A DNA stretch of 64,000 nucleotides from Herbidospora daliensis (GTDB lineage: Bacteria > Actinomycetota > Actinomycetes > Streptosporangiales > Streptosporangiaceae), in the NCBI RefSeq assembly GCF_001570585.1, contig NZ_BBXF01000001.1, forward strand, positions 985,691 to 1,049,690. The letters run 5' to 3'. Numbering within the stretch: the stretch's first letter is position 1; each line of letters starts with the position of its first letter. Positions 6,336-53,628 of the stretch are shown here, one piece after another. The notes below the pieces were generated by a model that was not told the origin of the DNA, made no database searches, and worked only from the letters and a program-made list of their open reading frames with translations. The position numbers were made by a program, and so were the translations under genes.

Positions 6336-7558
6336 CCGATGAGACAGCCGTTCAGCCTCTGCTGGAACCTCGCGAAGGGATCCCGCCCGTCATAGCGGAG
6401 GCCGCCGACCTCGCGGCGGCGGTGACCGCTTTCGCGGGCGGGACCGGCCCGGTGGCCGTCGACGCCGAGAGGGCGTCCGGCTACCGCTACAGCGGCCGGG
6501 CCTACCTCGTGCAACTCCGGCGGTCGGGCAGTGGGAGCGCGCTCATCGACCCGATCGCCTGCCCCGACCTGTCGGCGCTCGACGCCGCCCTGTCGGGCGC
6601 CGAGGTCGTGCTCCACGCCGCCACGCAGGACCTGCCGTGCCTGGCCGAGATCGGATTCCGGCCCAGGCGGCTGTTCGACACCGAGCTGGCCGGCCGGCTG
6701 CTCGGCTACGAGCGCGTCGGCCTCGGCACCATGGTCGAGGTCGTGCTGGGCTTCGGCCTGGTGAAGGGCCACTCGGCCGCCGACTGGTCGACCCGCCCGC
6801 TGCCCGAAGACTGGCTGCGCTACGCCGCCCTCGACGTCGAGGTGCTGATCGAGCTGCGCGACGCCCTCCACGCCGAGCTGACCGAGACGGGCAAGCTCGA
6901 ATGGGCGATGGAGGAGTTCGCCGCCATCCTGACCGCGCCGACGGCTCCCCCGCGCACCGACCCGTGGCGCCGCACCAGCGGCATCCACCGCGTCAGGGCC
7001 CTGCGCGGCCTCGCGGTGGTCCGCGAGTTGTGGACGATCCGCGACGCGCTGGCCCGCGAGACCGACCTGGCCCCGGGCCGGGTGCTGCCCGACTCGGCGA
7101 TCGTCCAGGCCGCCCTCGACCTGCCCCGCACGACCAAGTCGCTGACCGAGATCGCCCCCTTCACCGGCCGCAGCGCCCGCCGCCACCTGCGCGAATGGCT
7201 GACCGCCATCACCCGCGGCCGCACCATGCCCGAGTCGGAGCTGCCCCAGCCCCTCGGTCCGGGCGACGGCCCGCCCCCGGCGAACCGCTGGGCCGACCGC
7301 GACCCGGCGGCCGCCAAACGCCTCGCCGCCGCCCGCGCGGTGGTCGCGGCCCTGGCCGACGAACACCGCATGCCGACCGAGAACCTGCTCCAGCCCGACG
7401 CCGTCCGGCGGCTGACCTGGGAGCCCCCGGCCGACCTCGACGAAGACGCGATCTCCGAGCGGCTGCGGGCGCTGGGGGCCCGCGAGTGGCAGATCGGACT
7501 GGCGGCCCATCCGATGTCACGGGCGCTCCAGCGCCTGGAGATCAAGGGCGAGATCTGA
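6332..7558 (+). CDS. rnd: Ribonuclease D (DEDD exonuclease with HRDC domain)
   Basis: A 3'-5' exoribonuclease for tRNA and stable-RNA 3' ends. The exonuclease domain (residues about 20-190) has the DEDD acidic residues in VAVDAERASG, ATQDLPCL and the C-terminal YAALDVEVL motif. An HRDC helical domain follows (about 215-300, LAVVRELWTIRDALARETD). The 408-residue length is normal for actinobacterial Rnd. It starts with GTG, coupled to DUF3000. Its 3' end overlaps the convergent HxlR remnant by 17 bases. Confidence 0.9.
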   Translation: MTDETAVQPLLEPREGIPPVIAEAADLAAAVTAFAGGTGPVAVDAERASGYRYSGRAYLVQLRRSGSGSALIDPIACPDLSALDAALSGAEVVLHAATQDLPCLAEIGFRPRRLFDTELAGRLLGYERVGLGTMVEVVLGFGLVKGHSAADWSTRPLPEDWLRYAALDVEVLIELRDALHAELTETGKLEWAMEEFAAILTAPTAPPRTDPWRRTSGIHRVRALRGLAVVRELWTIRDALARETDLAPGRVLPDSAIVQAALDLPRTTKSLTEIAPFTGRSARRHLREWLTAITRGRTMPESELPQPLGPGDGPPPANRWADRDPAAAKRLAAARAVVAALADEHRMPTENLLQPDAVRRLTWEPPADLDEDAISERLRALGAREWQIGLAAHPMSRALQRLEIKGEI

Positions 7559-7919: not shown

Positions 7920-8608
7920 ACGCCTACGCCGGGGCCGATGCGGTCATCGTGCAACTGCCGCTCGTCTTCGCCGCCGATGCGGCCGTGCCGCAGGCCGAGG
8001 CGGTGCTGGCCGCGCTCAAGGGCGGCGCGGTGCCCCGAGTGGTGTTCAACACCGGCGGCCCGACGCCCGGCGGGCCCGTCGGTGTGCCCTTCGTGGACGC
8101 CCGGGTGCTGCTGGCCGCCGAACTGCCGGGCGTCGTGGACGCCGCGACCGTCGTGGCGCCGGCGTTCACGTACATGGAGAATCTCGCGGCCCCCTGGTCA
8201 CTCCCCCGGGTGGGCGAGGGGGAAGCCGCCTACCCGCTGCCGGCCGGCCTCCCGGTTCCCTGGCTGGCGCTCGACGATCTCGCCGGCGTCGTCGCCGACC
8301 TCGTCACCGACCCCGCTCCGCCGCCGGTGCGGATCGTGGCCGGCCCTCAGGCCCTGACCGGTCACCAGGTCGCCGCGGAGCTGACCGCCGCACTGGGCCG
8401 CGAGGTGCGGTGGCGGACGGTCGAGCCGGAGGAGTACGAGCGGATGCTGGCCCCGTTCACCGGCGCCGCGATCGCCGCGGGCATCGCCGCCGCCTACGCC
8501 CCTCCCCCGCCCGGATCACCGCCGCCCGCGGCGCCGGACCCGGCCGTGATCACGACCGGGACGACGACACTCCGCGAATGGGCCACCGGCCGGAGCCGGC
8601 GTCCCTGA
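7913..8608 (+). pseudogene. NmrA-like NAD(P)-binding oxidoreductase, N terminus missing
   Basis: The frame begins abruptly with AYAGADAVIVQLPLVFAADA, which in NmrA/atypical SDR proteins is at about residue 60. It continues with VVFNTGGP, LLAAELPGVVDAATVVAPAF and PVPWLALDDLAGVVADLV up to a normal C terminus. The N-terminal Rossmann strand with GATGxxG, which binds NAD(P), is absent. The only possible start is a TTG without a ribosome site. Upstream in this frame is antisense HxlR sequence, so about 55-60 codons and the intergenic region seem to have been lost. HxlR-NmrA divergent pairs are common in actinobacteria, which supports the deletion reading. Confidence 0.65.
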
Positions 8609-44993: not shown

Positions 44994-45716
44994 ATGACCA
45001 ACGCACACGCCGCCGGTGGCCCCTGGGCCCACCCCCACGAGTTCCACCGGGAGATCCGCAACCTCAAGGCCGCGCTCAAGGAGAACCTGCGCGGCATCGC
45101 CGCCACCTGGGAGGCCTCCGGCGGCGGCCCCCACGATCACCGGCATCGAGGCCACCGCGGCCGGGGCGGCCCGTGGGGCGGCGGGCCGGGGTTCGGCCCC
45201 GGCGGGCCCTTCGGGCCGGGCTTCCCGTTCGGGCCGCGCGGCTTCGGCCGGGGGCGCAAGGCCAAGCGGGGCGACGTCCGGGCCGCCATCCTGGCGCTGC
45301 TGTCGGAGGAGCCGCGCAACGGCTACCAGATCATCCAGGAGATCGCCGAGCGGTCGCAGGGCGGCTGGAAGCCCAGCCCCGGCGCGGTCTACCCGGCGCT
45401 CCAGCAGCTCACCGACGAGGGGCTGGTGCGGTCGGAGGAGGCCGACGGCCGCAAGACCTTCACGCTCACCGACGCCGGCCGCGCCTACGTGGCCGAGCAC
45501 CAGGACGAGGTCCGCGCCCCGTGGGAGGAGATGACTCCCGACATCGGAGACAACGTCCACGAATTGTTTGATTTGTCGCGTCAGGCCGCGTCCGCTTTGT
45601 TCCAGATCGCGCAGACTGGAAGTGAGAGCCAGGTGCGTCAGGCCAAGAAGATCCTGGCCGAGACCCGGCGCAAGCTCTACCAGGTCCTGGCCGACGGCGA
45701 CACCGACGAGGAGTAG
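44994..45716 (+). CDS. PadR-family transcriptional regulator
   Basis: A 240-residue regulator. The N-terminal 90 residues are an extension rich in Gly, Pro and His (GGPHDHRHRGHRGRGG, then GPGGPFGPGFPFGPRGFGRG). The PadR winged helix follows at about 92-170 (GDVRAAILALLSEEPRNGYQ, GGWKPSPGAVYPALQQLTDE), then a C-terminal dimerisation helix bundle. TGGAGGA precedes the ATG. Its stop overlaps the GTG of the DUF1707 gene. PadR proteins repress their own operon until a ligand binds. Confidence 0.9.
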   Translation: MTNAHAAGGPWAHPHEFHREIRNLKAALKENLRGIAATWEASGGGPHDHRHRGHRGRGGPWGGGPGFGPGGPFGPGFPFGPRGFGRGRKAKRGDVRAAILALLSEEPRNGYQIIQEIAERSQGGWKPSPGAVYPALQQLTDEGLVRSEEADGRKTFTLTDAGRAYVAEHQDEVRAPWEEMTPDIGDNVHELFDLSRQAASALFQIAQTGSESQVRQAKKILAETRRKLYQVLADGDTDEE

Positions 45717-46201
45717 TGACCCGTCTCATGACCGCTGACCGTGTTCCGCCCGCCGCGATGCGCATCGGCGACAAGGAGCGCGACGAGGTGACCGCCTTCC
45801 TGCACGACGCGTTCGCACAGGGGCGGCTCACCCGCGAGGAGCTCGACGAGCGCCTCGACGTCACGCTCGCCGCCAAGACCGCCGGCGACCTGGGCGTCGT
45901 CCTGGCCGACCTGCCCGGCGGGCAGGGTGTCGGCGCGGCTCCGGTCCCCCGGGCGCAGACGCCGCCGGGGGTCGACATGGGCAACTGGGGATACCACCTG
46001 GCCCGTCCGCCGCACGTCCGGATGCGGCGCGGGCCCGGACCGGGGGCGTTCGTCCCCTTGATCGTCGTGGCGTTGATCGCGATGATCGTGACGGGTGCGG
46101 TGTTCACGGTGTTCAAGATCCTGTTCTTCCTGTGGATCATCTCGCTGGTCGTGGGGGCGGCCACGCGGCACGGACGCCGTACACCCACGCGGTTCAGATA
46201 A
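45716..46201 (+). CDS. DUF1707 (SHOCT-like) membrane protein
   Basis: A protein of 157-161 residues. The N-terminal DUF1707 domain is AAMRIGDKERDEVTAFLHDA, GRLTREELDERLDVTLAAK, TAGDLGVVLADLPGG. A linker and a C-terminal hydrophobic region with two helices follow (FVPLIVVALIAMIVTGAVF, ILFFLWIISLVVGAA). The start is either GTG 45716 or ATG 45728. DUF1707 genes often accompany PadR or envelope-stress regulators. The function is unknown. The next gene starts 24 bases later. Confidence 0.82.
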   Translation: MTRLMTADRVPPAAMRIGDKERDEVTAFLHDAFAQGRLTREELDERLDVTLAAKTAGDLGVVLADLPGGQGVGAAPVPRAQTPPGVDMGNWGYHLARPPHVRMRRGPGPGAFVPLIVVALIAMIVTGAVFTVFKILFFLWIISLVVGAATRHGRRTPTRFR

Positions 46202-46225: not shown

Positions 46226-47305
46226 TTGCGGTTCCCGCGGGTCAAAGCGGAGCACCGCCCGTTCCGCACCACGGAGGGGACCGTCCGGATCGGCGGCGAG
46301 ATCTACGGACTCGCCGCCGAGATCGACGACCCCGGGGGCTGGGTCTGGGCGGCGCTGACGCTGCTCGACGGGCGGCGCGGGCCCGAGGCGGTGGCCGCCC
46401 GGCTGATCGTGATGTTCCCCGAGCTCAGCCCCGAGGAGGCGCGCGGCGTCGTCGACGACCTGGTCGGCTCCGGCTACCTGGAGGAGGCCACATCTCCCCC
46501 GCCGCGCGGGCTCACCCCGCGTGAGGTCGACCGCTACAGCCGCAACCAGGCCTTCTTCCGGGGCGTCGACCTGGTGCCCGGCCACAGCGCGTGGGAGACC
46601 CAGCTCGCCCTGAAGCGGGCGCGGGTGGTCGTGGTGGGGCTCGGCGGCACCGGCAGCCACGCCGCCTGGGCGCTGGCCGCGATCGGCGTCGGCCGGCTCC
46701 ACTGCGTCGACCCCGACCTGGTGGAGTTGTCGAACCTGAACCGGCAGCTGCTCTACACCGAGGCCGACGTCGGCCTCCCGAAGGCCGACCTGGCGCGCGA
46801 CCGGCTGGGCGCGGCCAACAGCGACATCGTGGTCACCTCGGCCCGCCACCGCGTCACCGGCGAGGCCGACCTGCGATCACTGGTCGACGGCTACGACGCC
46901 CTCGCCCTCTGCGCCGACGAGCCCAGGGGCGAGGGCATCCGCGTCTGGGCCAGCCGGGCCTGCGCGGCGGCCCGGGTGCCGTGGGCGGGCGGCGGCTACA
47001 ACGGGCCGCTCGTCACCGTCGGCGTGTTCGACCCGCCGGACGGCGCCTGCTACGAGTGCGTCGCGGCGGCCGAGCAGGCCCACCGGCCCGAAGGCGGCAC
47101 GCCCGATCTCGGCGGCCCCGGCGTGACCGGGACCTCGGCCGGCATCTCCGGCCATCTCGTCGCGCAGGCGATCGTCTCGCTGGTCACGGGGGTGCCCGAG
47201 GTGGCGCCGGGTTACGTCCACGGCATCAATCTGCTCTCGCCCGACCACCACGTCTACGCCCGTCACCGGGGTCGTGCGGGGTGCCCGACGTGCTTTGGGT
47301 CTTGA
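46226..47305 (+). CDS. ThiF/E1-like adenylating enzyme, MccB-like
   Basis: A 359-residue protein. Residues 1-95 look like a small winged-helix or peptide-binding domain (AALTLLDGRRGPEAVAARLI, EARGVVDDLVGSGYLEEAT). Residues about 105-359 form an E1 adenylation domain: RYSRNQAFFRGVDL, nucleotide loop ARVVVVGLGGTGSHAAWALA, VDPDLVELSNLNRQLLYTEA, GGGYNGPLVTVGVF, and the zinc cysteines CYEC and CPTC. Size, domain order and motifs agree with MccB, which converts the C-terminal Asn of the MccA peptide to an N-P-linked nucleotide. The TTG start has GGGGGAG upstream. A 37-residue peptide ending in Asn follows directly. Confidence 0.8.
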   Translation: MRFPRVKAEHRPFRTTEGTVRIGGEIYGLAAEIDDPGGWVWAALTLLDGRRGPEAVAARLIVMFPELSPEEARGVVDDLVGSGYLEEATSPPPRGLTPREVDRYSRNQAFFRGVDLVPGHSAWETQLALKRARVVVVGLGGTGSHAAWALAAIGVGRLHCVDPDLVELSNLNRQLLYTEADVGLPKADLARDRLGAANSDIVVTSARHRVTGEADLRSLVDGYDALALCADEPRGEGIRVWASRACAAARVPWAGGGYNGPLVTVGVFDPPDGACYECVAAAEQAHRPEGGTPDLGGPGVTGTSAGISGHLVAQAIVSLVTGVPEVAPGYVHGINLLSPDHHVYARHRGRAGCPTCFGS

Positions 47306-47366
47306 CGGTTGCGGGGGCCGCTTTACGATCACCTCGTGTCGGGGAACCGGGACGGAAGGTAACGGG

Positions 47367-47480
47367 ATGAAACAGTCGCAAAACGACGCCACGCCCAGTA
47401 CGCCCGTCAGACGGCAGATCACCATCCGCCGCCTGGGACGTAACGAGACAGCCATCTGCAGCAACTCGTACGGGAACTGA
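47367..47480 (+). CDS. Candidate RiPP precursor peptide ending in Asn (MccA-like)
   Basis: A 37-residue peptide with a good ribosome site (GGAAGG, 8 bases before ATG). It has a polar start (MKQSQNDATPSTP), a basic middle (RRQITIRRLGR) and ends NETAICSNSYGN. It lies 61 bases after the E1 gene and 54 before the DUF6879 gene, with no room for another role on this strand. The C-terminal Asn is what MccB-type enzymes modify. It is much longer than the classical seven-residue MccA, so a leader/core division is likely. A conserved but different use, such as a signalling peptide, cannot be excluded. Confidence 0.6.
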   Translation: MKQSQNDATPSTPVRRQITIRRLGRNETAICSNSYGN

Positions 47481-47534
47481 CCACCACTTCGGGCCGGCGA
47501 GAGGCGCGGATCGCCGGACCCGCCAGGAGGATGT

Positions 47535-48143
47535 GTGCGGGAGATCGTGCAAGGCGCACCCGGGGTCATGCTCGACCGGCAGGCGTACACGACCGAGTTC
47601 TACGGCCTCTACCGGGAGATGGAGGGGGTGCTCTGGAAGCTCGAACGGGCCCAGCACTTCCACGAGCCCTACAGTCCGAGCTGGGTCGCCTGGGCCGGGG
47701 GCGACTGGGACCGGGCGATGGAGCTGATCGAGGAGTCGGCCGCGGAGTTCGCCGCCGACGTGCCCGATTCGGTGGAGCTGCGGCGGTTGCGGATCGCCGA
47801 ACGGCCGCTGACGGCGTACCTGCGATGGGAACTTCAGGTTCTGAAGGCGCGGGCCAGGGCGGGCGAACGCGCCCGCGTGCTCGACGCCGAGGCGGTGCGG
47901 CACCTGGAGCGGGACGGCCCGCTCCCGGAGATCCTGGTCCTGTCGCGCGATCTCATGTACGAGGTCCGCTACGACGACATCGGCGCCCACCTCGGCGGTC
48001 GGCGCATCACCGAGCGAGACGTGATCGCGGCCTGCCTGGCGGAGCTGGAGGTCCTCTACGACCAGGCCGACGCCCTCGACCCGTGGGTGGCGGAGGCTAC
48101 CCCATCTCCTCCAGTTTTCGACCCTTCGTCTCCGACACGATGA
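47535..48143 (+). CDS. DUF6879 family protein
   Basis: A 202-residue cytoplasmic protein of the DUF6879 type found widely in actinobacteria. Typical pieces are EGVLWKLERAQHFHEPYSPS, RRLRIAERPLTAYLRWELQV, GPLPEILVLSRDLMYEVRYD and CLAELEVLYDQADALD. The function is unknown. The GTG start has GGAGG just upstream. It is the last gene after the E1 enzyme and the Asn-ended peptide, so immunity, regulation or a processing role could be tested. Its 3' end overlaps the convergent sugar-porter gene by 47 bases. Confidence 0.75.
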   Translation: MREIVQGAPGVMLDRQAYTTEFYGLYREMEGVLWKLERAQHFHEPYSPSWVAWAGGDWDRAMELIEESAAEFAADVPDSVELRRLRIAERPLTAYLRWELQVLKARARAGERARVLDAEAVRHLERDGPLPEILVLSRDLMYEVRYDDIGAHLGGRRITERDVIAACLAELEVLYDQADALDPWVAEATPSPPVFDPSSPTR

Positions 48144-49789: not shown

Positions 49790-52246
49790 TCACAGCCGGG
49801 GGTCGACAGGCTCACACTCCAGGGCGAGAACGGCGAAAACCGCCTCGTGAACGCGGTGGAGCGGCTCACCGGCCGCCAGTCGCGACAGCGCCTCGACTCC
49901 CAGGCTATGCTCGCGCAGCGCCAGCGACCGCTTCCGGCCGAGGAAACGTTTGCGCAGCTCGTCGAGCGATTCCAGGTAGTCGGGGCCGTAGATGATGCGC
50001 AGGTACTCGGGCCCGCGCACCTTGACGCCCGGCTGCACCCGGCCGCCGGGGTGGGCGACCGGCTTGACCACCATGCCCTCGCCGCCGGCGTCGGTCAGTT
50101 CCGTCCACCACTCCACCGCCGCCGTGCGCTGGTCTTCCCGCTCCAGGTCCACGTACGTGTGCCGGGTGCCGAGCACCAGCGGATGGACGACCGTGGCCAG
50201 CCGGTCGAGGTGCCAGTCGTGCGGCCGGGTAACGGCGGTGGCGCCCTCGGCGCAGGCGAGGATCTGGAACGGGGCGAAACGCAGACCGGAAACCCCGGAA
50301 ACGGGCTCGCAGTAACGGGCATACGCCTCGCGGAACCGGGCAGCGTTGATCTCGCGGCGCCGGGCGCGGTCCAGTATCGATCCCACATCCAGACCGCGTC
50401 CGGCCGCCGCCTCCAGGACGCCCACCGCGACGGGCAGCGCGGCCCCGGCGGCGGCGCCGACCGAGGCGTACTGGTCGCGGATCAGCTCACCGGCCTTGGC
50501 CGACCAGGGCAGCAGCTCGCCGTCGAGCACCAGCCACGGCGAGTCCTCCAGCAGCGGGGCGAACGCCTCGCGCAGCCCGGCGACGAACCGGTCCTGCAGG
50601 TCGCCGGCGAAGAAGGGGCGGCCGGTCCGGGTGAAGACCGTGCCGGTGCCCTCGATCCCGAACCGCTCCTGGGCGTCGGCGGGGGTGCGGGCCAGCACGA
50701 CGACCGCCCGGGAGCCCATGTGCTTCTCCTCGCACACCACCCGGGTCACCCCGGCGGCGGCGAACTCGGCGAAGGCCTCGTCGGGGTGTTCGAGGTAGCC
50801 GTCCTTCTTCGAGGTCTCCGGCGGGGCCATGGTCGGCGGCAGGTAGACCAGCCAGCGCGGGTCGACCGCGAACCGGCTCATGATCTCCAGGGCGGCGGCG
50901 GCGTTCTCCTCCCTGACCTTGATCGTGCCGCCGGAGGTCTCGACGTAGCGGTCGCCGGTGACGTCGCCGATGTCCAGGACGTCGGGCTCCCGGCCCCGCG
51001 AGGCGAGCGGCCGGGCGGGCTCGTACCAGACCTTCTCGGCCGGGACCGAGACGAGTTCCCGCTCGGGGTAGCGCAGCGCGGTGAGCCGGCCGCCGAAGAC
51101 GACGCCGGTGTCGAGGCAGATGGTGTTGTTGACCCACTCGGCGACGGTGGTCGGGGTGTGGCCGTAGACGACCGCCGCCCGGCCCCGGTACTCCTCGGCC
51201 CACGGGTAGCGGACCGGCAGGCCGTATTCGTCGGTCTCGCCGGTGGTGTCGCCGTAGAGGGCGAACGACCGCACCCGCCCCGAGGCGCGGCCGTGGTAGG
51301 CCTCCTTGAGGCCGGCGTGCGCGACCACCAGCTTGCCGCCGTCGAGGACGTAGTGGCTGATGAGGCCCGTCATGAACGCCTTGGCCCGGCCGGTGAACTC
51401 CTCGTCTTCGAGGGCGAACTGCTCCAGCGACGTCTCCAGGCCGTGGGCGACCCGGACCTTGCGGCCGTTGAGGGCGCGTACCAGCTTCTGCTCGTGGTTG
51501 CCCGAGACGCACAACGCGGTGCCGCGCTCGACCATGTCCATGACCCGGCGCAGCACCCCCGGGCTGTCGGGGCCCCGGTCGACGAGGTCGCCGACGAACA
51601 CGGCCGTCCGGCCGTCGGGGTGGACGCCGTCGGCGTAGCCGAGGGCGGCCAGCAGGGCGTCCAGCTCCGAGGCGCAGCCGTGCACGTCGCCGACGATGTC
51701 GAACGGCCCGGTCAGCTCGGTCTTGTCGGTCCACGCCTTCTCGTAGGAGATCACGGCGTCGTCGATCTGGTCGCCGCGCAGCACGTGGACGCGGCGGAAC
51801 CCGTCGCGGGAGATCTTCGACAGCGACTGCCGCAGGTCATTACGCTGCCGCCGGATCACGTGGGAGCCGAAGTCGCGGTCGGGCCTGACCGCGTTGCGGG
51901 CGACCGCGACCTCCTCGGGCACGTCGAGCACGATGGCGTCGCACAGCACGTCATGGCTCTTGGCCAGCGCCACCAGCGCCTGCCGGGCCTTCCACTGGAC
52001 GTTGGTCGCGTCGACCACGGTCAGCAGGCCGCGCCGCAGCCGCACGCCGACGATGTGGTGCAGCAGGTCGAACGCCGCCGGGGTGGCGGCCTGGTCGTTC
52101 TCGTCGTCGGCGACCAGCCCCCGGCAGTAGTCGGAGGAGATGACCTGGGTCGGCTTGAAGTGCTTGCGCGCGAAGGTGGACTTGCCGCTGCCGGACACCC
52201 CGACCAGCACGACGAGCGACATCGCGGGGACGCTGATCTCGGTCAT
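49790..52246 (-). CDS. pnkp: Bacterial polynucleotide kinase-phosphatase-ligase (Pnkp)
   Basis: An 818-residue RNA-repair enzyme with three domains. The 5'-kinase is residues about 10-165, with P-loop LVGVSGSGKSTFARKHF. A calcineurin-like 2',3'-phosphatase is about 180-430, with FDIVGDVHGCASELDALLAA, VFVGDLVDRGPDS and CVSGNHEQKLVRAL. A C-terminal ligase-type adenylyltransferase has Lys about 507 in VVCEEKHMGSRAVV. Its stop region ends at 49790. It is coupled to hen1 by an ATGA overlap (52243-52246). Together they repair RNAs broken by ribotoxins, leaving a 2'-O-methyl mark at the junction. Confidence 0.93.
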   Translation of the reverse strand: MTEISVPAMSLVVLVGVSGSGKSTFARKHFKPTQVISSDYCRGLVADDENDQAATPAAFDLLHHIVGVRLRRGLLTVVDATNVQWKARQALVALAKSHDVLCDAIVLDVPEEVAVARNAVRPDRDFGSHVIRRQRNDLRQSLSKISRDGFRRVHVLRGDQIDDAVISYEKAWTDKTELTGPFDIVGDVHGCASELDALLAALGYADGVHPDGRTAVFVGDLVDRGPDSPGVLRRVMDMVERGTALCVSGNHEQKLVRALNGRKVRVAHGLETSLEQFALEDEEFTGRAKAFMTGLISHYVLDGGKLVVAHAGLKEAYHGRASGRVRSFALYGDTTGETDEYGLPVRYPWAEEYRGRAAVVYGHTPTTVAEWVNNTICLDTGVVFGGRLTALRYPERELVSVPAEKVWYEPARPLASRGREPDVLDIGDVTGDRYVETSGGTIKVREENAAAALEIMSRFAVDPRWLVYLPPTMAPPETSKKDGYLEHPDEAFAEFAAAGVTRVVCEEKHMGSRAVVVLARTPADAQERFGIEGTGTVFTRTGRPFFAGDLQDRFVAGLREAFAPLLEDSPWLVLDGELLPWSAKAGELIRDQYASVGAAAGAALPVAVGVLEAAAGRGLDVGSILDRARRREINAARFREAYARYCEPVSGVSGLRFAPFQILACAEGATAVTRPHDWHLDRLATVVHPLVLGTRHTYVDLEREDQRTAAVEWWTELTDAGGEGMVVKPVAHPGGRVQPGVKVRGPEYLRIIYGPDYLESLDELRKRFLGRKRSLALREHSLGVEALSRLAAGEPLHRVHEAVFAVLALECEPVDPRL

Positions 52247-53628
52247 GCCGAGTCCTCCTTGCCGAAGACGGCCATCTGGGTGGGCGAGCCGACCTCGGGG
52301 TCGTCGTCGCCGACGGCGCGGAACTCCACCCGGTAGCCGTAGCGCCCGGCGACGCGGAGGGCCCAGTCGCGGAACTCGGCCCGGGTCCACTCGAAACGGT
52401 GGTCGGGGTGGCGCAGGCCGGTCAGGTTCTCGTAGCGCGGGTTGTACTCGGCGTTGGGCGTGGTGACCAGCACGTAGGTGGGCTTGGCGGCGCCGAAGAC
52501 GACCCGCTCCATGGCCGGGAGCCGGGGCGGGTCGAGGTGCTCGACGACCTCCATCAGGACGGCGGCGTCGTATCCGGCGAACCGGGCGTCGGTGTAGGTG
52601 ACCGACCCCTGGAAGAGGTCCACCCGCTCGCGGGTCCGGCTCCCCATGCGGTCGAGCTTCAGCTTGCGGGCCGCGACCATGAGCGTGTGGGCCGACACGT
52701 CCACCCCCGTGATCTTCGGTACGCCCTGGTCGAGCAGGGCCGTGATCAGCTGCCCCGACCCGCAGCCGAGGTCGATGACGCTGCGTGCCTGGAGCTCGGC
52801 GAGGGTCGCCACGACGGCGTCGCGGCGCAGGGTGTTGAGGGGGATGCGCACCTCCTCCTCGGCCGGCGGCGCCAGCGTCTCCTCGTCGTCGTCGCCCACC
52901 TCGGCCAGCCGGGCGAAGGCGGCCCTGGTCAGGGCGGTCCGGCGGTTGAGGAACCGGCGGGCGATGAGGGTGAGGTCGGGGTGGACGGCCAGCCAGCCCT
53001 CGCCCGCGCGGATCAGCTTGTCGACCTCGTCCTCGGCGATCCAGTAGTGCTTGGCGTCGTCGAGGACCGGCAGCAGGACGTAGAGGTGGTTGAGGGCGTC
53101 GGCCAGCCGGAGCTCGCCCGTGAGCGTGAGGGTGACGTAGCGGGAGTCGCCCCACTCGGGGAAGGCGGGGTCGAGCGGGATCGGGTCGGCGGTGACGTCC
53201 CAGCCCATCGGCTCGAACAGGCGCCGGGCCAGCGCGGGCCCGCCCCGGCACGGCAGCGCCGGCAGCGTGATCTCCAGCGGGATGGCGGTCTCGGCCAGCT
53301 CCGGCCGGGCGGCGCACCGGCCCGAGCGGGCGGTCCGGAAGACCTCGGCCATGGCGGTCGACAACAACGACGAGGCGGCGTAGGGGCGGTCGTTGACGTA
53401 CTGGCCCAGGCTGAAGTCGGGGGTCGTCTTGCCGCGGGTGCGCGCGAGGCGTACCGGATCGACGTCGAGCAGCAGCGCGGCGGTGCACCTCTGCTCGGTG
53501 GCCTCGGGATAGAAGACGTGCGCGACGCCGAACGCACGGGGGAACTCCTGCACTCGATCTGGATGCTTGTGCAGCAGGAAGCCGAGATCGGTCGCCGGTT
53601 CACGGGTGGTCGAGATGGTCAGCAGCAC
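52243..53628 (-). CDS. hen1: Hen1 3'-terminal RNA ribose 2'-O-methyltransferase
   Basis: A 461-residue protein. The N-terminal half is the Hen1-specific domain that supports Pnkp ligase activity (LLTISTTREPATDLGFLLHK, DFSLGQYVNDRPYAASSLLS). The C-terminal methyltransferase has the SAM motif VIDLGCGSGQLITALLDQG and the metal-binding catalytic motif LMEVVEHLDPPRLPAMERVV, and ends in HRFEWTRAEFRDWA. GTG start. Hen1 methylates the 2'-OH of the broken 3' end before ligation, protecting the repaired site from recleavage. Confidence 0.93.
   Translation of the reverse strand: MLLTISTTREPATDLGFLLHKHPDRVQEFPRAFGVAHVFYPEATEQRCTAALLLDVDPVRLARTRGKTTPDFSLGQYVNDRPYAASSLLSTAMAEVFRTARSGRCAARPELAETAIPLEITLPALPCRGGPALARRLFEPMGWDVTADPIPLDPAFPEWGDSRYVTLTLTGELRLADALNHLYVLLPVLDDAKHYWIAEDEVDKLIRAGEGWLAVHPDLTLIARRFLNRRTALTRAAFARLAEVGDDDEETLAPPAEEEVRIPLNTLRRDAVVATLAELQARSVIDLGCGSGQLITALLDQGVPKITGVDVSAHTLMVAARKLKLDRMGSRTRERVDLFQGSVTYTDARFAGYDAAVLMEVVEHLDPPRLPAMERVVFGAAKPTYVLVTTPNAEYNPRYENLTGLRHPDHRFEWTRAEFRDWALRVAGRYGYRVEFRAVGDDDPEVGSPTQMAVFGKEDSA

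What the first reader, a model, noticed from the sequence alone, without database searches (positions are those of the whole stretch)
46226..48143. MccB-like E1 enzyme, Asn-terminated peptide and DUF6879: possible actinobacterial microcin C-like system
Seen: a 359-residue ThiF/E1 protein with an N-terminal clamp-like domain, GLGGTG loop and CYEC/CPTC zinc site. It is followed by a 37-residue peptide with a good ribosome site ending SNSYGN, then a DUF6879 gene, evenly spaced on one strand. Known: MccB adenylates the C-terminal Asn of MccA, giving a Trojan-horse aminoacyl-tRNA synthetase inhibitor. Inference: the peptide may receive a nucleotide at its last Asn. The long peptide, its Cys, and DUF6879 instead of the usual exporter would make it a distinct variant.
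Basis: partly seen in the sequence, partly recalled or inferred. Interest (0 to 1): 0.88.

Follow-up and report, generated by a model that had tools for sequence, protein, structure and literature searches.

The report
Uncharacterised ThiF-enzyme RiPP peptide cluster
A bacterium, probably an actinomycete, carries a small gene cluster in which a relative of the microcin C enzyme sits beside a short peptide that it probably modifies; related peptides mostly do not end in asparagine, so this is probably not a microcin C but a related, still uncharacterised modified peptide.

Summary
ThiF/E1 (46226-47305), a 37-residue peptide (47367-47480) and DUF6879 (47535-48143) lie on one strand. The enzyme's closest solved relatives, by sequence and predicted fold, are MccB and PaaA. 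The peptide is not chance: a leader motif [ILV]x[IVL][RK]xL[DE]KxET[TA] plus a 5-11 residue tail accompanies the enzyme in 80 of 98 loci (73 of 90 distinct enzymes) and 0 of 54 MoeB/ThiF control loci.

The specific microcin C reading fails as a family rule: 20 of 56 distinct tails end in Asn, and within one core motif, SNSxGx, the last residue is N, A, S, T or C. Related loci often add an M50-like metalloprotease; the window's genome and five same-genus genomes show none. DUF6879 has a predicted phospholipase-D-like fold (weak).

Best reading: a ThiF-like-enzyme RiPP system in which the enzyme adenylates a precursor carboxylate, most likely the C-terminus. A bolder, unproven proposal is closure by a Ser/Cys about six residues upstream to a small lactone or thiolactone. 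New variant of a known kind.

The parts
46226..47305 (+). RRE-ThiF/E1-like adenylating enzyme, 359 aa (N-domain about 1-94, ThiF domain about 97-356, Cys4 275/278/353/356)
   Evidence: MccB E 3e-45 and PaaA E 1e-44 by profile; AF2 model pLDDT 90, best Foldseek match MccB 5e-25; N-domain matches PaaA N-domain E 1.1e-10
47302..47329 (+). promoter-like element TTGACG-N16-TACGAT before the peptide; the first box overlaps the ThiF stop codon
   Evidence: 1 found, 0.1 expected; in relatives 18 of 73 peptide upstream regions reach 9/12, 1.5 expected from mononucleotide shuffles, the 73 not being independent
47367..47480 (+). precursor peptide, 37 aa; leader block residues 18-29 (ITIRRLGRNETA), variable tail 30-37 (ICSNSYGN)
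   Evidence: related peptides beside related enzymes
47535..48143 (+). DUF6879 protein, 202 aa, predicted phospholipase-D-like fold; recurrent partner
   Evidence: Pfam PF21806 1.3e-31; 28 of 85 loci; AF2 pLDDT 90.4; Foldseek PLD-superfamily hits, best E 1.3e-4
45716..46201 (+). DUF1707 gene directly upstream, possibly same transcript; membership in the system not shown
   Evidence: PF08044 1.4e-18; directly upstream of ThiF in 12 of 85 loci
44994..45716 (+). PadR-family regulator upstream, possibly same transcript; membership not shown
   Evidence: PF03551 2e-21; upstream in 16 of 85 loci

Best explanation
The locus is a minimal RiPP cluster of the ThiF-like (MccB/PaaA/GrcB/EnfB/IndF) kind. 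The N-terminal RRE of the enzyme binds the leader block (ITIRRLxxNETA) of the 37-residue precursor. The E1 domain then uses ATP-Mg to adenylate a carboxylate of the peptide, most likely the C-terminal one, since the tail is short, rich in Gly/Ser/Asn and variable. The adenylate is then captured. My preferred, weaker sub-claim is capture by a Ser or Cys side chain at a near-fixed distance, usually position -6 (Ser32 here; Cys31 is next to it), giving a 6-7 residue macrolactone or thiolactone. In related loci an M50-like metalloprotease would remove the leader; here that step would need another protease. DUF6879 would bind precursor or product (immunity, sensing or carrier role). Shown here: homology, recurrence of the peptide, gene linkage, active-site residues. 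Inferred: leader binding, which carboxylate, the ring, all functions of DUF6879 and of the protease.
For: Enzyme: MccB and PaaA are the closest solved relatives by profile and MccB then PaaA by fold; N-domain matches the PaaA N-domain. Residues N170, R173, Q174, K186 and D231 and C275/C278 are invariant, C353/C356 nearly so, in both alignments (25 and 24 sequences), and align with the NLxRQ, GKNK and AD stretches of MccB. Precursor: 80 of 98 loci, 0 of 54 controls; the motif was first seen in an unfiltered listing of ORFs after ThiF. Tail positions counted from the C-terminus have 2.3-3.4 bits of entropy; leader positions 0.25-0.80 bits where conserved, but the search pattern fixes these, so this contrast is partly built in. 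Promoter-like element. Partner protease: HExxH in 36 of 36; its N-domain profile hits TbiB1 (E 0.034), a PqqD protein (0.25) and TfuB1 (0.55), RREs as I recall, weakly. Ring sub-claim: Ser/Cys at -6 in 62% of 31 enzyme clusters at 70% identity (shuffles 27%; 0 of 2000 as high at any of 7 positions) and 69% of 54 clusters at 90%, a post hoc observation; S/C exchange at -6 between QTYSGNSNS and TTYCGNSNS. Literature: the five studied enzymes adenylate a carboxylate, and PaaA, GrcB, EnfB and IndF cyclise (sections read; the EnfB structure is called provisional there).
Against: No biochemistry. The ring sub-claim weakens with coarser clustering: at 60% identity (14 clusters) 5.1 observed against 3.7 expected, 310 of 2000 shuffles as high. 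4 of 56 distinct tails, in two enzyme clusters, have no Ser/Cys/Thr (GLREGG, ALREGG, IERDEG, GWRVIGAGG). The window's genome has no match to a partner protease that is found in 3 of 3 positive-control genomes, so the pathway as drawn is incomplete there; no dedicated exporter or immunity gene was recognised. 18 of 98 loci showed no peptide by the criteria (looser candidates were seen in a few of the 13 loci re-inspected). Only 2 of 396 genomes of a phylum-wide draw passed E 1e-60, one being the window's own.
Confidence: 0.74

Rival explanations
1. True microcin C-like chemistry: the enzyme adenylates C-terminal Asn37, forms the succinimide and then an N-P bond to a nucleotide, giving a Trojan-horse synthetase inhibitor.
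For: Enzyme is MccB-like by sequence and fold. The window's peptide and those of five same-genus genomes end in Asn; 20 of 56 distinct tails do.
Against: 36 of 56 distinct tails do not end in Asn; within the motif SNSxGx the last residue is N, A, S, T or C. No MccE/MccF-like gene was noticed among the window genes scanned (no dedicated search).
Confidence: 0.12
2. GrcB/PaaA-like side-chain activation: the Glu of the ETT motif (Glu27 here) is adenylated and attacked by Cys31 or another nucleophile.
For: Glu is present in 54 of 57 distinct leader blocks, though the strict pattern asked for an acidic residue there. Glu27 and Cys31 have the same i,i+4 spacing as Glu35-Cys39 of GrcA (PMC12250964 section 4).
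Against: Two Paenibacillus peptides have Lys and one Nonomuraea peptide Gly at this place. 21 of 56 distinct tails contain Cys and its distance from the Glu varies. Conservation of Glu may equally reflect leader recognition or cleavage.
Confidence: 0.13
3. Other capture of a C-terminal adenylate: backbone amide (EnfB-like imide), an external amine, a sulphur donor, or a pearlin-like scaffold whose last residue is altered and released.
For: EnfB and IndF show that related enzymes capture the adenylate in different ways. M50 proteases release C-terminal residues in pearlins (PMC10885120, passages seen).
Against: Among the few recurrent neighbour clusters that were identified (M50-like, DUF6879, MFS, PadR, DUF1707, aconitase, YdjM, YhhN, CGNR and MmyB-type regulators; two unassigned) no sulphur-transfer or amidating gene was recognised; no dedicated search was made.
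Confidence: 0.2
4. Not a RiPP: a housekeeping-type E1 beside an unrelated short ORF.
For: ThiF/MoeB-type E1 enzymes are common and short ORFs arise by chance in GC-rich DNA.
Against: N-terminal RRE-like domain; peptide motif in 80 of 98 loci and 0 of 54 controls; promoter-like element.
Confidence: 0.03

Closest known systems
Microcin C (MccA/MccB)
   Same: Enzyme fold, E1 active-site motifs, Cys4 site, short precursor gene beside the enzyme
   Different: Longer precursor with leader block and variable tail; final Asn in 20 of 56 distinct tails; M50-like protease or DUF6879 as frequent partners; nucleotide addition unknown
Pantocin A (PaaP/PaaA)
   Same: PaaA is the only one of 25 listed solved sequences whose match starts in the N-domain (E 2.8e-56, profile 3-348)
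   Different: No Glu-Glu-Asn stretch in the 56 distinct tails
GRC thiolactone RiPPs (GrcA/GrcB)
   Same: RRE-ThiF enzyme with adjacent precursor; Glu-x3-Cys spacing occurs in the window's peptide
   Different: No radical SAM gene among the window genes scanned; Glu-Cys pair not conserved
Enterofaecin (EnfA/EnfB) and ind (IndA/IndF)
   Same: RRE-ThiF enzyme with short precursor; EnfA has a (V/I)RKA leader motif and ind has a peptidase and a transporter
   Different: WWIVI or NWYFI cores there; Gly/Ser/Asn-rich, often Cys-bearing tails here
Daptide / epipeptide intramembrane M50 metalloproteases
   Same: Partner proteases have HExxH (36 of 36); 2 of 5 scanned show weak similarity to NF041824 (E 3e-6 and 0.017)
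   Different: Below the NCBIfam cut-offs; of five scanned with Pfam M50 only one passes the cut-off; no match in the window's genome

Membership tests
ThiF-like-enzyme RiPPs (general kind) | E1/ThiF domain fused to an N-terminal RRE | tested here: met
   PF00899; N-domain matches PaaA N-domain E 1.1e-10; fold matches MccB along the protein
ThiF-like-enzyme RiPPs (general kind) | adjacent precursor gene with conserved leader and variable core | tested here: met
   80 of 98 loci, 0 of 54 control loci
ThiF-like-enzyme RiPPs (general kind) | ATP-dependent adenylation of a peptide carboxylate | not testable with these tools
   Active-site residues invariant, activity unknown
Microcin C | MccB-type enzyme with Cys4 site | tested here: met
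Microcin C | precursor ends in Asn throughout the family | tested here: not met
   20 of 56 distinct tails end in Asn
Microcin C | nucleotide joined to Asn by an N-P bond | not testable with these tools
   Needs biochemistry
Microcin C | dedicated MFS exporter (MccC) | tested here: inconclusive
   13 of 85 loci have an MFS gene of one cluster nearby on the same strand (PF07690 in one member); in the window only a convergent sugar-transporter MFS (PF00083)
Microcin C | self-immunity genes MccE/MccF | not tested
   No dedicated search made
Pantocin A | Glu-Glu-Asn core | tested here: not met
   Absent from the 56 distinct tails
GRC RiPPs | conserved Glu-Cys pair | tested here: not met
   21 of 56 distinct tails hold Cys
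GRC RiPPs | radical SAM partners | tested here: inconclusive
   None among the window genes scanned; relatives' neighbours were only partly identified
Phospholipase D superfamily (DUF6879) | catalytic HKD motif | tested here: not met
   By eye, no HxKxxxxD among the invariant columns of 9 sequences; fold similarity itself is weak, best E 1.3e-4, TM about 0.44

The most novel reading that the evidence does not exclude
A widespread, undescribed RiPP class of Actinobacteria with relatives in Bacillota: an RRE-E1 enzyme closes the last six or so residues of a short precursor into a Ser-lactone or Cys-thiolactone through the C-terminal adenylate, an RRE-bearing M50-like metalloprotease releases the ring, and a phospholipase-D-fold protein (DUF6879, elsewhere fused to NB-ARC/TPR domains) is the product's intracellular receptor or immunity protein. 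That would be an autoinducer-like peptide signalling system built around a ubiquitin-E1-type enzyme.
Probability: 0.22. Interest if true: 0.82.

Novelty: new variant of a known kind. Interest (0 to 1): 0.62.

Why it matters
ThiF-like RiPP enzymes turn one activation step into several different bonds, and few have been studied. This family offers a simple substrate-enzyme pair, many natural tail variants, and a clear prediction about which residue attacks. It also gives DUF6879, a family of unknown function found in 131 of 150 genomes drawn from the window's family, a concrete context to test.

Tried and rejected
Final-Asn rule: rejected by the tail comparison. Chance ORF: rejected by the control loci. 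Glu27 as universal electrophile: disfavoured, not excluded. Known precursor family: the window peptide and three relatives had no NCBIfam match at E <= 1; a fifth, Cys-rich Bacillus peptide had a sub-threshold match to a streptolysin S-type TOMM family. Anti-phage E1-E2 system: the PADLOC matches shown (25 of 28 families) lie within residues 121-231 only; no E2/JAB partner was recognised, without a dedicated search. Literature: searches (open-access PMC library only) listed no paper that I could see to describe this peptide motif or DUF6879 with ThiF. [quoted passage not shown] supplements could not be read here. PMC12250964: outline and sections 2.4, 4 and 5 read. PMC10885120 and PMC7470986: passages only. 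The profile comparison of the two RRE-like domains (protease versus E1) was weak (probability 42%). Ser/Cys counted from ETT instead of from the C-terminus peaked lower among positions with at least 26 clusters (0.49 against 0.62 at 70% identity; position 9, with 14 clusters, reached 0.55).

Full report
What is there. ThiF runs from a TTG at 46226 to 47305, the peptide from ATG 47367 to 47480, DUF6879 from GTG 47535 to 48143. The enzyme carries PF00899 (E 2.9e-45) and the third gene PF21806 (E 1.3e-31); the peptide matched no Pfam model at E <= 0.1 or NCBIfam model at E <= 1. Upstream on the same strand are a DUF1707 gene and a PadR regulator, an order seen in part of the relatives.

The enzyme. 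Profiles of the family find MccB (E 3e-45) and PaaA (E 1e-44) first among solved proteins; with a broader alignment PaaA comes first and aligns over both domains (E 2.8e-56). An AlphaFold2 model (mean pLDDT 90) matches MccB best (E 5e-25, TM 0.73-0.80), then PaaA, then ThiF and MoeB. The N-terminal 94 residues alone match the PaaA N-domain (E 1.1e-10). Residues R173, Q174, K186 and D231 are invariant in the 25 and 24 aligned sequences. So the MccB-like identification is right for the enzyme.

The relatives. Of 150 genomes drawn from the window's family, 90 have a ThiF-type match at 1e-20, many of them weak and probably MoeB-like; 42 hold the 53 places at E <= 1e-50 (counted). In a phylum-wide draw 2 of 396 genomes pass 1e-60, one being the window's own. 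Of 569 confirmed named candidates the best 80 were kept; those with a full-length match include Microbispora, Sphaerisporangium, Planotetraspora, Nonomuraea, Microtetraspora, Streptomyces, Actinacidiphila and Glycomyces; more remote matches include Bacillota. Relatives also lie on Streptomyces, Actinacidiphila, Nocardia and Sporosarcina plasmids.

The peptide. An unfiltered listing of ORFs after ThiF showed a recurrent block, [ILV]x[IVL][RK]xL[DE]KxET[TA], followed by a tail of 5-11 residues. A strict pattern fits within 1.5 kb on the same strand in 70 of 98 loci, on the opposite strand in 4 more, and by hand in 6 more, together 80 of 98; with identical enzymes counted once, 73 of 90. In 54 control loci around MoeB/ThiF enzymes, from mixed phyla, the pattern does not occur in 698,471 bases. 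Five further hits lay 2.6-2.7 kb downstream of an enzyme; these are second peptides followed by a second DUF6879 gene (two of the five are one locus). Two Paenibacillus peptides flanking one enzyme extend the family (KKITIKPVKTVKTTGLTLN and its partner). 18 of 98 loci had none by these criteria; looser candidates were seen in L078, L221, L194 and L081.

The final residue. Among 56 distinct tails 20 end in Asn, 11 in Gly, 10 in Ser, 7 in Ala, 3 in Cys, 2 in Thr and one each in Met, Asp and Glu. Tails of the same shape differ at the end: SNSVGN, SNSTGA, SNSQGS, SNSNGT, SNSNGC. The microcin C rule is not met. In the six same-genus genomes examined SNSYGN is kept.

A fixed nucleophile? Counting from the C-terminus, position -6 is Ser or Cys in 62% of 31 enzyme clusters (70% identity), against 27% in shuffled tails, and none of 2000 shuffles reached this at any of seven positions; at 90% identity it is 69% of 54 clusters. 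Five distinct tails have Cys at -5 instead (L055, two in L184, L182, L056). With clusters at 60% identity the excess at -6 is not significant, 4 of 56 tails have no Ser/Cys/Thr at all, and the pattern was noticed on the same tails that were then tested. I therefore offer ring closure onto Ser/Cys as a hypothesis, not a result.

Expression. A TTGACG-N16-TACGAT element lies at 47302-47329, its first box overlapping the ThiF stop codon. Of 73 peptide upstream regions 18 reach 9 of 12, against 1.5 expected from mononucleotide shuffles. The 73 include close relatives, and the start codons were chosen by script. Many loci with the peptide after ThiF keep TTGAC at a similar place. This suggests that the precursor has its own transcript; no experiment supports it.

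Partners. Of 85 loci, 36 have an M50-like metalloprotease gene of one cluster, all 36 with HExxH; 28 have DUF6879 downstream; 10 have both; 13 an MFS gene. With identical enzymes counted once, and two loci outside the enzyme set left out, the figures for M50-like, DUF6879 and MFS are 33, 24 and 10 of 76. The gene caller was crude, so these may be low. Of five such proteases scanned against Pfam one passes the M50 cut-off and four are below it; two of five show a weak match to the daptide metalloprotease. The protease N-domain resembles RREs only weakly by profile and its comparison with the enzyme's N-domain is weak too. A partner-protease query found matches in 3 of 3 genomes known to hold one and none in the window's genome, five same-genus genomes and G022. 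The window's genome has one DUF6879.

DUF6879. The model is confident (pLDDT 90.4); Foldseek returns mainly phospholipase-D-superfamily folds (PLD3, FAM83, NucT, Zucchini) and MITD1, best E 1.3e-4, TM about 0.4, which I regard as suggestive. No HKD motif is conserved in nine sequences (by eye). The family is common (131 of 150 genomes), and on a Kitasatospora plasmid it is fused to NB-ARC and TPR domains. In one genome a peptide and DUF6879 stand without enzyme or protease in the 13 kb read (L201). A binding or sensing role is my inference.

Known context. A 2025 review and the IndF paper describe MccB, PaaA, GrcB, EnfB and IndF as enzymes that adenylate a carboxylate and differ in what attacks it. 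M50 proteases act in epipeptide and pearlin pathways (passages). None of the paper searches listed this precursor family or DUF6879 in such a cluster, within an open-access library.

Verdict. A real and conserved, apparently undescribed variant of ThiF-like RiPP systems.

Noticed in passing
L201 (G119:C126:59000-72000), peptide near 6426: A precursor of this family followed by DUF6879 with no ThiF or M50-like gene found in the 13 kb: the pair can stand alone.
   Followed up: partly
L199 3962-7006 (Kitasatospora cathayae plasmid): DUF6879 fused to NB-ARC and TPR domains, hinting at a sensor role.
   Followed up: no
L217-L220: A more distant ThiF protein lies on the opposite strand beside a DUF6879-like gene in 4 of 4 (profile; Pfam for L217 only); in the three inspected for short ORFs (L217, L218, L220) a 66-residue MKLRKLGT... 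ORF is there too. L218 and L219 have identical enzymes.
   Followed up: no
L081 upstream of ThiF at 8001 (Bacillus sp. SA1-12): A 26-residue ORF with a Cys-rich tail before an RRE-ThiF-like enzyme and an M50-like protease; sub-threshold NCBIfam match to the streptolysin S-type TOMM family. Only described, not pursued.
   Followed up: no
L223 and L224 (peptides near 6827 and 7529, - strand): A separate enzyme clade with very short precursors...EIKKVEEVETTGNSNSC and ...ETTSNSNGC, ending in Cys, with an M50-like gene.
   Followed up: no
window 49793-52300 (-), start codon not determined: Bacterial PNKP-type RNA repair protein (kinase, phosphoesterase, ligase domains); a similar-looking gene lies near this locus in 14 of 85 loci (likeness judged by eye).
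   Followed up: no
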